A DNA stretch of 64,000 bases. It comes from Nitrosococcus halophilus Nc 4. Lineage in GTDB: Bacteria; Pseudomonadota; Gammaproteobacteria; Nitrosococcales; Nitrosococcaceae. The DNA lies in assembly GCF_000024725.1 (NCBI RefSeq), contig NC_013960.1, positions 2,528,001 to 2,592,000 of the forward strand, in the 5' to 3' direction. A program made the position numbers and the translations under genes. Positions 22,446-53,711 of the stretch are shown piece after piece; the first letter of the stretch is position 1, and each line of letters begins with the position of its first letter. The notes under the pieces are model-generated. The model was not told where the DNA came from. It worked only from the letters and a program-made list of their open reading frames with translations, and ran no database searches.

Positions 22446-23319
22446 AAGGTTCACTCTTAAATCAAATCTAAATAGAAGAATAGACTATATCAATATTAGG
22501 TTTGACGGTAATTTGACGGAAAAGTTACAAAGCGGCGAGAAAATTGCACTAAACGGGGGTTCGAGTATCGCCCTACTACGACAACTATGGATTTAGGGGC
22601 TGGTGCGCGACGCCGGTAAGGGCTGCTGAGAGGCTTTGGGGCAAGGAAATGAGTTTTCCCGACTAGTTACGATAGAAATATTGAAGGAAGGGAATATTGA
22701 AGGAAGGGAATAATTAGGGAGACATACTATTTACCTTAGATTTGCTATCCTTCGCCCGTTTTGGTCTTGGGCAGTGTAGGATTGGCCCATCTTAGTCTGA
22801 TTTTTTTCTGTTAAGCAGCCGATACATTTTATACCAATCAATTTTTTATCTCCATTTATTAATGCTTTCTTTGATATTTACAATTGCTTTTATTGTGATG
22901 GTGTTAACTGGATGATACAAAAAAATATGCAATTTCCGATTTATTATCGTTTTTTTAAAATAATAATATTAAATAACAAGAGTATAAGTTTTGGCACATT
23001 TTTTGATTTAATTTCAAAGGCGCGTACCCATAATCTTTATCATGCTAGCTAACAGAGCGGTATGATTTATCTATAAATTATTGTCATCAATAGATGATTT
23101 GGTCCTAGTCTCAATGATAAAAAAGCCACGCTTGCTGGCCCCGAATAAGCCCAAAATGTTGGTGGTCTTATGGGATGAAGCAGGAGCGAGCCATTACCGG
23201 AGGCAGAATAATAAAAAAGCAAACACAGAAGATAAAACAAACCGCATTGAAGGATCTCAACCGGTGAGGCAGTGATTTTTGATCAGCTTAATTTTTAGCT
23301 AACCTGCGATGTGATTTAA
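22446..23319. other. Long AT-rich gap without a recognisable gene
   Basis: About 870 bases separate the YiiX-like gene from the cyclotransferase; they are divergently transcribed, so promoters for both must lie here. There is a 16-bp tandem repeat at 22677-22708. A 64-codon frame at 23081-23275 lacks a ribosome site and any recognisable motif, so I do not call it. I found no tRNA or structured RNA. Confidence 0.6.
22677..22708. repeat. 16-bp tandem duplication
   Basis: AATATTGAAGGAAGGG occurs twice without a gap (22677-22692 and 22693-22708), followed by AATAATT. It lies in a non-coding stretch. Confidence 0.8.
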
Positions 23320-49849: not shown

Positions 49850-50013
49850 CCGCGCCCATTGCGCTACAAAGACACAAAGGGTTGTGTTTTAAATGGGGAG
49901 AATTGAGCAAATTAATGGAGGCTAAGCTCATCCGTTTCCGGCAATGACCTTGCCGGAAACGGTCTCAAGGCCTTATTGATGGGCGCCCTCCCTGGCGCGC
50001 TTCCTGCGGAGGT

Positions 50014-50050
50014 CCCGATTCGCTCCCGGCGAATCGGTCCGGCCTACGAG
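50014..50050. repeat. Short GC-rich palindromic unit near REP copy 2
   Basis: GATTCGCTCCCGGCGAATC is a stem (arms GATTCGC/GCGAATC, apart from the loop), followed by CGGCCTACGAGG, which resembles the REP tail. It lies 19 bases before the REP-like unit at 50069. Confidence 0.45.
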
Positions 50051-50068
50051 GAGGCGCCAATAAACACT

Positions 50069-50108
50069 GTAGGCCGGATTAAGCGTCGCGTATCCGGCAA
50101 GACAATAC
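50069..50108. repeat. REP-like extragenic palindrome, copy 2 (inverted)
   Basis: TGTAGGCCGGATTAAGCGTCGCGTATCCGGCAAGACAATA is the inverse of the 41864-41904 copy over nearly its full length. It ends 2 bases before the ATG of HMG-CoA lyase and so occupies the place of the ribosome site. Confidence 0.75.
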
Positions 50109-50110
50109 TA

Positions 50111-51031: not shown

Positions 51032-51180
51032 AACAACCTAGACCCGTGATTCGATAACGTTAGAGCTGGGGATTTCAAGTTTACCCAATAGCGCGTAAAG
51101 CATCGCCCAATCGGGCGGTGATATAAGCGCAAGCCGCGAAGCGGATTTACAGAATGTGCTGAGATTTGTAAAATACAAAT

Positions 51181-52323
51181 ATGACGAAGAGGGCGTACCA
51201 GGAACGATTCTATCCCACAGCTGAACAAGCCGAACTGCTGGCTCGTTCGTTCGGCTGTGCGCGTTTTGTTTGGAACAACACGCTCAAGCATCGTACCGAT
51301 GCGTTCTATCAGAACGGCGAAGTCATTCCCCATTGGGCGCTGGAAAAAAGGCTTGTCCAACTCAAGCAGGACTTTTCTTGGCTGAATGAGGTTTCCAGCG
51401 TTATTTTCCAGCAGTTGCTGCGCGATCAGCAGCAGGCTTTCAAGCCCTTCTGGGAGAAGCGAGCGGGGTATCCGCGTTTCAAATCCAAGCCTTGGGGCCA
51501 GTCAATCCGACTGACCAAAGCCGCGTTCCGGTTCAAGGACGGCCAACTGTTCATTGCCAAGTCGAGCGAACCGCTGAATATCCACTGGAGCTTCAAGGAC
51601 GGTCTGCCGTCGGAGCCCTCCGCTATCACGATTTCTAAGGACGCAGCGGGGCGCTATTTTGTGTCCATGCTGTGTGAATTCGAGTCCGAACCGATGCCGG
51701 TGGTCAACAAGACGGTCGGCATCGATCTGGGTCTGAAAGACTTGTTCGTCACTAGCGACGGATTCAAATCCGGCAATCCCAAGTACACCGAGCAGTACGA
51801 AGCGAAGCTGGCCTATCTGCAGCGTAAGCTGGCGAAGAAGCAGAAAGGTTCCCGTAACCGCAACAAACTGCGGCTGAAGGTGGCCCGTGTGCACACCAAA
51901 ATAGCTGACTGCCGTAGGGACGCCACCCACAAGGCGACCCGCACACTGATCAACGAAAACCAAGTCGTGTGCGTTGAATCTCTGGCGGTGAAGAACATGA
52001 TCAAACACCCCCGGCTTGCCAAGCCCATAGCCGATGCCCATTGGGGTGAGTTTGTCCGTCAACTGAAGTACAAGGCGCAGTGGGTAGGGCGAACCGTAGT
52101 CGAGATCGACCGCGGGTTTCCCAGTTCCAAGCGTTGTCCCACCCCAGGGTGCGGACATATCAACGAAACGCTGCCGCTGGAGGTGCGTGAATGGCGCTGT
52201 CCCTCGTGCGGGAGTGTCCATGACCGCGACATCGCAGCGGCGATCAATATCAAAACCGCCGGGCTGGCGGGGTTAGCCTCTGGAGCCACTGGAACGGGGG
52301 CGACAACAGGCGTTGTCGCCTAG
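51181..52323 (+). CDS. tnpB: RNA-guided nuclease TnpB, full length
   Basis: The 380-residue protein keeps every TnpB site: RuvC-I Asp in GIDLGLKD, RuvC-II Glu in VCVESLAVKN, RuvC-III Asp in HDRDIAAAIN, and the zinc finger with RCPTPGCG and CPSCG. It could be an active reRNA-guided nuclease. The 3' part of the gene and the right end would normally encode the guide RNA. A small open frame follows the stop but has no known product. Confidence 0.9.
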   Translation: MTKRAYQERFYPTAEQAELLARSFGCARFVWNNTLKHRTDAFYQNGEVIPHWALEKRLVQLKQDFSWLNEVSSVIFQQLLRDQQQAFKPFWEKRAGYPRFKSKPWGQSIRLTKAAFRFKDGQLFIAKSSEPLNIHWSFKDGLPSEPSAITISKDAAGRYFVSMLCEFESEPMPVVNKTVGIDLGLKDLFVTSDGFKSGNPKYTEQYEAKLAYLQRKLAKKQKGSRNRNKLRLKVARVHTKIADCRRDATHKATRTLINENQVVCVESLAVKNMIKHPRLAKPIADAHWGEFVRQLKYKAQWVGRTVVEIDRGFPSSKRCPTPGCGHINETLPLEVREWRCPSCGSVHDRDIAAAINIKTAGLAGLASGATGTGATTGVVA

Positions 52324-52400
52324 GGAAGGCGTGTTGAACGAGGAAAGTTCTTGGAGTGATCCAACAACCCTCGCCCGACAGGGCCGGGAGAAGTCAGACT
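52301..52400 (+). ncRNA. Candidate guide-RNA (reRNA) scaffold region of TnpB
   Basis: In IS605-type elements the right end, overlapping the end of tnpB, encodes the reRNA. Here this part contains the palindrome GCGACAACAGGCGTTGTCGC and a later CCCGACAGGG stem. This is placed by analogy; the guide would be the bases just past the right end, whose position is not certain. Confidence 0.35.
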
Positions 52401-52532
52401 TGCACCCCAAATTCATACTCGATATAGATAACGTACTCTACCTCGCGGTGATAGAGGAGATGCTTCAGAATAAGTGGTTTGCCGGACTCAACAAGCTTGC
52501 CGCCTAGATCCTTAACCAGATCCCTGAAAAAG

Positions 52533-52554
52533 GGCGCGGCTGGGTTGCCGCGCC
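52533..52554. other. GC-rich hairpin
   Basis: GGCGCGGC (52533-52540) and GCCGCGCC (52547-52554) form a perfect 8-bp stem with a 6-base loop, in the gap before hicB. No U-tract follows, so its role is unclear. The rest of the gap holds the TnpB-element end and no clear gene. Confidence 0.5.
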
Positions 52555-52628
52555 TGTTAAACTACATGTGAAATTGGCGGGCGTGGTGGAAATATAGCGT
52601 TTCCCGAATACCAGGTGAGGATTTTCCT

Positions 52629-52856
52629 ATGCAAAAGCAGTTTAAAATTGTAATTGAAAAGCACACTGAAGGTTATGTTGCTTATCCACTTGGACTAAAA
52701 GGGGTTATTGTTGGTCAAGGTGATACCTATGAAGAAGCGCTTACCGATGTCAAATCTGCCATATGCTTCCATATAGAAACCTTTGGCCGAGATGCCTTTC
52801 AAAATGATGATTCTATTTTGGAAGCTTTTGTTGCAGAGACAAAAGTGGCTATATAA
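52629..52856 (+). CDS. hicB: HicB-type antitoxin
   Basis: The 75-residue protein has the HicB fold: KHTEGYVAYPLGLKGVIVGQGDTYEEALTDVKSAI matches the family's core. It is short and lacks the C-terminal DNA-binding domain of longer HicB proteins. The stop overlaps the hicA start by one base, so the two are coupled. It follows the TnpB element by about 230 bases. Confidence 0.85.
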   Translation: MQKQFKIVIEKHTEGYVAYPLGLKGVIVGQGDTYEEALTDVKSAICFHIETFGRDAFQNDDSILEAFVAETKVAI

Positions 52857-53095
52857 TGCCGAAATTTCCCGCTGATGCTCCCAAGGCGAGAGTCATAAAA
52901 GTATTTGAACGCTTGGGGCTCGAATTGGTACGAGAGCGTGAGTATATTGCTATGATACGGCAAAATATTGATGGAACTAAAACGCCTCTTACAATACCCA
53001 ACCATCTTCGCATTAAAGGTTCAACATTAAGAACAATATGTACGTAAGCTGGCATTCCGAGAGATGAATTCCTAAAGGTTTATGAGCAAACATGA
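52856..53095 (+). pseudogene. hicA: HicA mRNA interferase toxin, apparently inactivated
   Basis: The frame is HicA-like (ARVIKVFERLGLELVRERE...PNHLRIKGSTLRTICT) but stops with TAA at 53045-53047 after 63 codons. Past this stop, the same frame continues as AGIPRDEFLKVYEQT and ends with TGA at 53093, the expected C-terminus of the family, so the TAA is most simply a CAA (Gln) mutated to a stop. In addition, the place of the catalytic His (EHIAM in relatives) reads EYIAM. Both would be C-to-T changes. Confidence 0.75.
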
Positions 53096-53240
53096 AATAG
53101 GAATCACAGTCAGATTAAGGTATCTTTAAAAACTAGCACTATCCTACCCATCATAAATAAGCTAATGGTGTTTTCATGAGCACTGAGATCAATTCAATAT
53201 TGCCGTCCCTTAATAAATCCAACAAACAAGGAGATTAACA

Positions 53241-53711
53241 ATGAAGCAAATATTCTCGGGTCTACTGCTGGTTGCTGCATCGGGACTTGCATTTGCAGAC
53301 ACTGGTCCAGGCTGCGGCGCGGGTTCTGTGCTCTTTAAAGGTCAAGACGGGCTTGCTCCTCATGTTCTGGCGGCAACCACCAATGCCAGCTTCGGCAACC
53401 AAACGTTTGGGATGACTACGGGTACTTTGGGCTGTGATACCAGTGATAACATCGACGTGATGGCCGCCAATTTTTTCGATCAAAATCTGGAACAATTGGC
53501 GGCCGATATGAGCCGTGGTGAAGGCGAGCACCTCAACGCCCTGATGGCGCTTATGAAGGTTCAGGATGTTGATAAGAACCATTTCAAGATGACAGTGAAA
53601 AAACAGTTTAGCACTATTTTCCCAAATCGGAATGTGACTTCTAATGAAGCACTCTCCAAACTCGAAGAAGTCATGAAAGGGGATGCGGCCCTGGCTAAGT
53701 ATCTGGGTTAA
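53241..53711 (+). CDS. DUF3015 periplasmic protein
   Basis: The 156-residue protein has a signal peptide (LLLVAASGLAFA) and then the DUF3015 pattern: GCGAGSVLFKGQDGL, NASFGNQTFGMTTGTLGC and a helical C-terminus. No biochemical role is known for the family. A ribosome site (AAGGAG) lies upstream. A strong terminator follows at 53728-53754. Confidence 0.85.
   Translation: MKQIFSGLLLVAASGLAFADTGPGCGAGSVLFKGQDGLAPHVLAATTNASFGNQTFGMTTGTLGCDTSDNIDVMAANFFDQNLEQLAADMSRGEGEHLNALMALMKVQDVDKNHFKMTVKKQFSTIFPNRNVTSNEALSKLEEVMKGDAALAKYLG

What the first reader, a model, noticed from the sequence alone, without database searches (positions are those of the whole stretch)
52856..53095. HicA toxin inactivated twice, with an intact antitoxin
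The toxin frame has a TAA where the family has Gln, and the sequence beyond the stop still encodes the usual C-terminus. The catalytic His position reads Tyr. Both are single C-to-T changes. hicB in front is intact. A toxin that lost its catalytic residue first would let later damage accumulate, and the antitoxin could now be free for other regulation.
Basis: partly seen in the sequence, partly recalled or inferred. Interest (0 to 1): 0.62.

Follow-up and report, generated by a model that had tools for sequence, protein, structure and literature searches.

The report
Decaying HicA toxin gene beside antitoxin
A bacterial toxin gene has lost its key catalytic residue and gained an early stop while its antitoxin gene still reads through: the usual way such toxin-antitoxin pairs decay, confirmed here but not unusual.

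Summary
In 82 homologous loci the codon that is Tyr here is His in 80, Leu in 1, Tyr in 1; the codon that is TAA here is Gln in 82. The frame beyond the stop still matches the family, so the stop looks recent. The locus is a hicBA module of the small 'Class 2' kind; no member of its subgroup was found in the three congeners. The antitoxin frame is open, but 'free for other regulation' is not supported: it is a 75-aa partial RNase H domain without DNA-binding domain, as in its subgroup, and carries an unusual R46C. Decay of hicA with a recognisable partner is in print (hicA frameshift in Stenotrophomonas, PMC7650669); the same genome and one archaeal relative show similar cases. Against certainty: the order of hits cannot be read from one sequence; the 63-aa product keeps most of the core fold; some other HicA-like frames of this genome lack the His naturally; a toxin-first bias in stop counts was not significant. 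Best reading: ordinary decay of an acquired toxin-antitoxin module.

The parts
52629..52856 (+). hicB antitoxin gene, 75 aa, open and full length; partial RNase H fold only, no DNA-binding domain
   Evidence: 0 departures at 23 columns conserved in at least 95% of 80 homologues, 2 conservative ones (D14E, V27I) at 35 columns at 90%
52764..52766 (+). hicB codon 46, TGC (Cys), where homologues mostly have Arg, Gln, Lys or His; on the predicted long helix 34-56
52856..53095 (+). hicA frame (pseudogene): 63 codons, TAA, 15 family-like codons, TGA
52919..52921 (+). hicA codon 22, CTC (Leu), where 82 of 82 homologues have Phe
52943..52945 (+). hicA codon 30, TAT (Tyr), at the catalytic His column (first residue of beta2 in the model of homologue L009)
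53045..53047 (+). premature TAA in place of the subgroup's invariant Gln64; removes the last residue of alpha2 and all of alpha3 of the L009 model
51079..52399 (+). TnpB-only IS200/IS605-type element upstream (TnpB ORF 51181-52323), multi-copy in this genome; ends taken from the extent of the repeats
53115..53711 (+). start of DNA conserved in two congeners that lack hicBA here: upstream region and DUF3015 gene (53241-53711)

Best explanation
A hicBA toxin-antitoxin module of the small Class 2 kind was acquired by a Nitrosococcus-like chromosome next to a DUF3015 gene and then lost its toxin by ordinary point mutation. HicA would have been a small dsRBD-fold RNase neutralised by HicB. Shown here: derived Tyr at the catalytic His column, derived stop at codon 64, derived Leu at an invariant Phe, open hicB, no subgroup member found in the three congeners. 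Inferred: lateral acquisition; that the toxin no longer works; that hicB persists passively because losing the toxin first is the harmless order and little time has passed. Which hit came first is unknown.
For: 80 of 82 homologues have His and 82 of 82 have Gln at the two columns; Phe22 in 82 of 82. A concatenated HicB+HicA tree of 79 sequences puts the window with L101 and then L024 (support 0.79 and 0.92), which have His, Phe and Gln, so the changes are derived. The model of homologue L009 (pLDDT 95.7) matches HicA structures 1whz, 6hpb, 6g26, 5yrz; published work finds the beta2 His needed for toxicity (PMC3969222, PMC12297915, abstracts and passages). Codons beyond the stop still family-like. 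The flanking DNA matches two congeners only from 53115 on, and profile scans of all four genus genomes find the subgroup only here (HicA 142.8 bits against 40.8 for the next; HicB 141.9 against 30.1). Similar decay: L028 (TGA at codon 26, hicB open), and apparently L140 and L145 in the same genome. Precedent in print: hicA frameshifts in Stenotrophomonas hicAB (PMC7650669, passages), nonsense decay of toxin-antitoxin loci (PMC7167474, passages).
Against: The truncated product keeps residues 1-63 of a fold whose E. coli counterpart aligns to model residues 9-68, so it may fold. Some HicA-like frames in this same genome lack the canonical His yet are open (L006 GSR, L138 GSQ, L144 GSA), so loss of that His is no proof of inactivity; Tyr could in principle act. 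When the window itself is aligned to a profile of 14 genus HicAs without a gap, Tyr30 falls one place before the His column; the gapped alignments of L009, L101, L044 and L079 put it on the column. In-frame stops are not significantly commoner in HicA (6 of 52) than in HicB matches (1 of 26) of the genus (Fisher p 0.41), and one converse case exists, so a general toxin-first bias is not shown by my counts.
Confidence: 0.86

Rival explanations
1. The stop and/or Tyr codon are sequencing or assembly errors and the toxin is intact.
For: Only one assembly of this species was at hand.
Against: The assembly is 2 contigs, 99.98% complete. Three departures at columns conserved in at least 97% in one 240-base gene would need three base errors; codon 22 follows a run of four G, the other two sites are not beside a homopolymer.
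Confidence: 0.04
2. HicB is kept by selection without its own toxin, for example to neutralise related HicA toxins on incoming elements (anti-addiction) or another HicA of this genome.
For: hicB has no departure at 23 columns conserved in at least 95% of homologues. Anti-addiction by chromosomal antitoxins is a proposed model (PMC2654758, PMC7192599, passages). Solitary HicB genes are reported in Methanosarcina, one rising during virus infection (PMC9694453, PMC10865869, passages).
Against: No HicA of the same subgroup elsewhere in the genome: next best 33% identity. R46C lies on the helix that faces HicA in known complexes. HicB's terminal branch is not shorter than usual (rank 23 of 79 from the longest). 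Persistence for a short time needs no selection.
Confidence: 0.06
3. HicA is still an active or HicB-binding truncated protein: a shortened toxin or decoy with Tyr in place of His.
For: The stop lies after nearly the whole alpha1-beta1-beta2-beta3-alpha2 core; L079 has Tyr in a full-length frame with an open hicB.
Against: The missing part includes the invariant Gln64 and, by my own reading of the alignment, the Ala that sits in the hydrophobic core of B. pseudomallei HicA (core listed). F22L adds to the damage. H24A abolishes toxicity in B. pseudomallei and gonococcal HicA.
Confidence: 0.05

Closest known systems
Class 2 hicBA modules (small HicB without DNA-binding domain, hicB first; PMC10865869, passages)
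   Same: Gene order, one-base overlap, 75-aa HicB with partial RNase H fold only, HicA frame of 79 codons if the stop is passed over
   Different: hicA here carries a premature stop and two missense changes at invariant or nearly invariant columns
hicAB pseudogenes of Stenotrophomonas maltophilia with a frameshift in the toxin gene (PMC7650669, passages)
   Same: Toxin gene broken in an otherwise recognisable hicAB locus
   Different: Point mutations instead of a frameshift; hicB first and without DNA-binding domain
ccdO157 decay in E. coli (cited in PMC2654758, passages; the original paper not seen)
   Same: Chromosomal toxin-antitoxin module in decay
   Different: Different toxin family; that work concerns the E. 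coli species as a whole, here there is one genome

Membership tests
HicA toxin (PF07927) | Sequence match to the Pfam model over its curated cut-off | tested here: inconclusive
   Window product 22.1 bits, cut-off 27; with the stop read through in the genome scan 25.7 bits, still below. All 28 homologues given to the call match at E up to 0.1 (28 of the 82 loci), L009 with 34.9 bits.
HicA toxin (PF07927) | alpha1-beta1-beta2-beta3-alpha2 dsRBD-like fold | tested here: met
   Tested on homologue L009, not on the window's own truncated protein: 1whz Z 9.9, 6hpb 7.2, 6g26 7.2, 5yrz 7.1, next unrelated row 4.8
HicA toxin (PF07927) | Catalytic His at the start of beta2 | tested here: not met
   Tyr; His in 80 of 82 homologues
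HicA toxin (PF07927) | Growth arrest relieved by the cognate HicB | not testable with these tools
   Needs expression
HicB antitoxin (PF15919) | Sequence match over the curated cut-off | tested here: not met
   Window HicB 15.8 bits, cut-off 27; 23 of 28 HicBs scanned, the window's included, match at E up to 0.1, best 0.0013. The scan of the genus with this family did not list the window's hicB.
HicB antitoxin (PF15919) | Partial RNase H fold and position next to hicA | tested here: met
   Foldseek top rows are HicB chains (6g26, 4p78, 6u0i, 4p7d, 6g1c), E 0.02-0.16 for those ten rows, TM by query 0.51-0.60, none at E up to 0.001; adjacent in 81 of 82 loci
Class 2 hicBA module | hicB upstream of and overlapping or adjacent to hicA | tested here: met
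   TAATG overlap at 52854-52858; gaps of -8 to +6 in the 77 loci parsed by script
Class 2 hicBA module | Small HicB (63-103 codons) without DNA-binding domain | tested here: met
   75 aa; model has three strands, one long helix and a tail; no DNA-binding family at E up to 0.1 in the Pfam scan of 28 HicBs
Class 2 hicBA module | Functional toxin gene | tested here: not met
   Judged from sequence only: premature stop, H30Y, F22L

The most novel reading that the evidence does not exclude
A HicB without a DNA-binding domain has been kept after its toxin died because it blocks HicA toxins of incoming elements, i.e. a domesticated anti-addiction protein; or the truncated Tyr-HicA is retained as a decoy that holds HicB.
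Probability: 0.06. Interest if true: 0.45.

Novelty: new member of a known kind. Interest (0 to 1): 0.2.

Why it matters
It is a clean snapshot of a toxin-antitoxin module dying on the toxin side: catalytic column, an invariant Phe column and the C-terminus hit while the antitoxin frame stays open. An annotation that calls the 63-aa product a HicA toxin should not count it as an active one. The wider lesson is that a HicB of this class cannot be assumed to be a DNA-binding regulator once its toxin is gone.

Tried and rejected
Sequence search of PDB with the HicA profile: 0 matches at E up to 1; the fold comparison was needed. Viral contigs: none of 18 candidate stretches encodes a relative. 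Phylum sample with profile A1 at E up to 1e-12: only the window's genome of 398. Class sample with the protein: 15 of 369 genomes match at E up to 0.001, of which two beside the window's own (G283, G167; 70 and 68% identity) belong to the subgroup by identity. Rfam around the locus: one match far below its gathering score, in the TnpB gene, taken as chance. Promoter-like and terminator-like sites no more than in shuffles; no inverted repeat. Toxin-versus-antitoxin stop counts in the genus: not significant. NCBIfam: no HicA or HicB model matched. Literature searches: (two of them returned nothing); in the listings and in the passages of the papers that I opened I saw no description of this locus. 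I saw search listings, abstracts and passages, no whole paper.

Errors of mine, corrected: L102 was read on the wrong strand, and L028 was dropped; supersede those HicA counts. The HicB counts rest on 80 homologues (L055, cut off by its contig, and L102 missing; the altered frame L083 included). The tree used 79 sequences including the window; L083, L102, L028 and L055 were left out. In one search the minus-strand loci L001-L004, L007 and L121 were read on the wrong strand, so only L005, L006, L008 and L138-L148 were judged from it.

Full report
What is there. The window is G000:C2:2528001-2592000 of a 4,145,260-base genome in two contigs, 4,079,427 and 65,833 bases. From these lengths I recall it as Nitrosococcus halophilus Nc4; no call names it. 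At 52629-52856 lies a 75-aa hicB frame whose TAA overlaps the ATG of hicA at 52856. The hicA frame runs 63 codons to TAA at 53045-53047, and beyond it 15 codons and a TGA continue in the same frame.

Homologues. A scan of one-genome-per-species contigs returned 80 loci (best 80 of 177 confirmed), and a class sample added L101 and L102. In these 82, codon 30 is His in 80 (CAT 55, CAC 25), Leu in L036 and Tyr in L079; codon 64 is Gln in 82 (CAA 61, CAG 21). The window has TAT and TAA. Codon 22 is Phe in 82 of 82 and Leu in the window. The best-80 choice favours intact genes, so the share of broken relatives is a lower bound: L028 has a TGA at codon 26 with an open hicB, and L054 a stop at codon 74.

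How damaged. At 26 columns conserved in at least 97% of the 82, the window has 3 departures and no other sequence more than 2; at 35 columns (95%) one other has 3; at 43 columns (90%) twelve others have 3 or more. So the damage sits at the most conserved places and the rest of the frame is near normal: 49 of 63 residues before and 11 of 15 after the stop equal the consensus. The decay thus looks young. In the model of homologue L009 (mean pLDDT 95.7) residue 30 is the first of strand beta2, helix alpha2 is 55-64 and a further helix alpha3 is 69-77. Foldseek's one match at E up to 0.001 is 1whz. VIA-align gives 1whz (TTHA1913) Z 9.9, and HicA of E. coli (6hpb, Z 7.2, model residues 9-68), B. 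pseudomallei (6g26, Z 7.2, residues 5-67) and S. pneumoniae (5yrz, Z 7.1). Z near 7 alone would be weak, but these four stand above the next, unrelated row (4.8). A profile of 14 genus HicAs puts the His of L009, L101 and L044 and the Tyr of L079 in the GSH His column with a one-residue gap; the window itself aligns there without the gap, so that its Tyr falls one place early. Its place rests on the ungapped alignment with its own subgroup. Papers report that this His is needed: H24A and G22C in B. pseudomallei HicA (PMC3969222, abstract and passages), Gly22, His24 and His29 in gonococcal HicA (PMC12297915, abstract and passages). The subgroup mostly lacks that Gly (most have R-E-R-E-H or R-E-K-E-H; L037, L076, L080, L088 have a Gly two before the His), so it is a divergent HicA branch. 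The stop removes the end of alpha2 and alpha3 only, so the 63-aa product may still fold; the case for inactivity rests on the three changes together.

Counter-evidence on the His. HicA-like frames in the same genome without His at that place exist: L006 (GSR), L138 (GSQ) and L144 (GSA), all open. They look like other HicA branches, and whether they are active is unknown. L079 keeps a full frame with Tyr. So a missing His is strong but not absolute evidence.

The antitoxin. hicB has no departure at 23 columns conserved in at least 95% of 80 homologues and two conservative ones (D14E, V27I) at 35 columns at 90%. It carries R46C; the column is mostly Arg, Gln, Lys or His. Residue 46 lies on the long helix 34-56 of its model (pLDDT 89.3). 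In known complexes helix alpha1 of HicB packs against the HicA sheet (PMC10865869, passage). The model's best Foldseek rows are HicB chains (6g26, 4p78, 6u0i, 4p7d, 6g1c), but at E 0.02-0.16 and TM 0.51-0.60 only, and its Pfam HicB score is below the cut-off (15.8 against 27). HicB was found next to hicA in 81 of 82 loci (77 by script, L015, L017 and L053 visible in its printout, L102; L055 is cut off by its contig). Counted from the conserved start, 74 of the 77 parsed are 72-77 aa; L077 is 86, L083 has an altered N-terminus, and the count for L043 failed because of an upstream start. No DNA-binding family is matched at E up to 0.1 by the 28 HicBs scanned. This is Class 2 in the scheme of PMC10865869: hicB first, small, no DNA-binding domain, not yet studied by experiment according to that paper (passages). 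A role in 'other regulation' by DNA binding is therefore not supported.

Place and history. The DNA search with 52500-53240 found only the stretch from 53115 (G002) or 53125 (G001) on in two congeners and nothing in the third; there the DUF3015 gene and the next gene are conserved without hicBA in front. Profile scans of the four genus genomes find the subgroup only in this one: HicA 142.8 bits against at most 40.8 elsewhere, HicB 141.9 against at most 30.1. The stretch 51079-52399 is a TnpB-only IS element with three other nearly full-length copies at 98% in the genome. Next best HicA in the genome: 33% identity. The concatenated protein tree (79 sequences) puts the window with L101 (a genome of the same class) and then L024 (Candidatus Parabeggiatoa), support 0.79 and 0.92. 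The window's terminal branch ranks 12 of 79 from the longest for HicA and 23 of 79 for HicB, so hicB is not visibly slower than its peers.

Other broken pairs. In the four genus genomes 6 of 52 HicA matches have a stop inside, 4 of them among the 19 of this genome; HicB matches 1 of 26, in a scan that misses the window's own hicB; the difference is not significant (p 0.41). Of the 4 in this genome, the window, L140 and L145 have an open hicB-like frame beside them, and at L008 the hicB looks frame-shifted too. One converse case exists: a hicB match with a TGA beside a full-length hicA frame at C2:2928220-2928596.

Verdict. Observation confirmed and extended by F22L. Interpretation partly supported: a dying toxin is the best reading; the order of hits is unknown; a new regulatory job for HicB is unsupported. 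Toxin decay by nonsense or frameshift, including hicA, is in print (PMC7650669, PMC7167474, PMC2654758; [quoted passage not shown] Interest is low.

Noticed in passing
window 51079-52399: TnpB-only IS200/IS605-type element, three other nearly full-length copies at 98% and many fragments in the same genome.
   Followed up: partly
window 49976-50110: A dispersed repeat of about 135 bases with many full or partial matches in this genome and in congener G003.
   Followed up: no
L145 (second contig, 65.8 kb, place 22546-22701) and L140 (C2:1261695-1261853): Two more HicA-like frames with in-frame stops beside open hicB-like frames; the one at L145 is longer and looks as if it had an RHH-like C-terminus (by eye).
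   Followed up: partly
G000:C2:2928220-2928596 (L003, L099): Converse case: HicB match with an in-frame TGA beside a full-length HicA frame.
   Followed up: no
L079 1185-1418 and L036 1501-1737: Full-length subgroup HicAs with Tyr and Leu at the catalytic His column beside open hicB frames: candidate catalytically dead but otherwise undamaged HicAs.
   Followed up: partly
L006, L138, L144: HicA-like frames that lack the GSH His (GSR, GSQ, GSA) yet are open.
   Followed up: no
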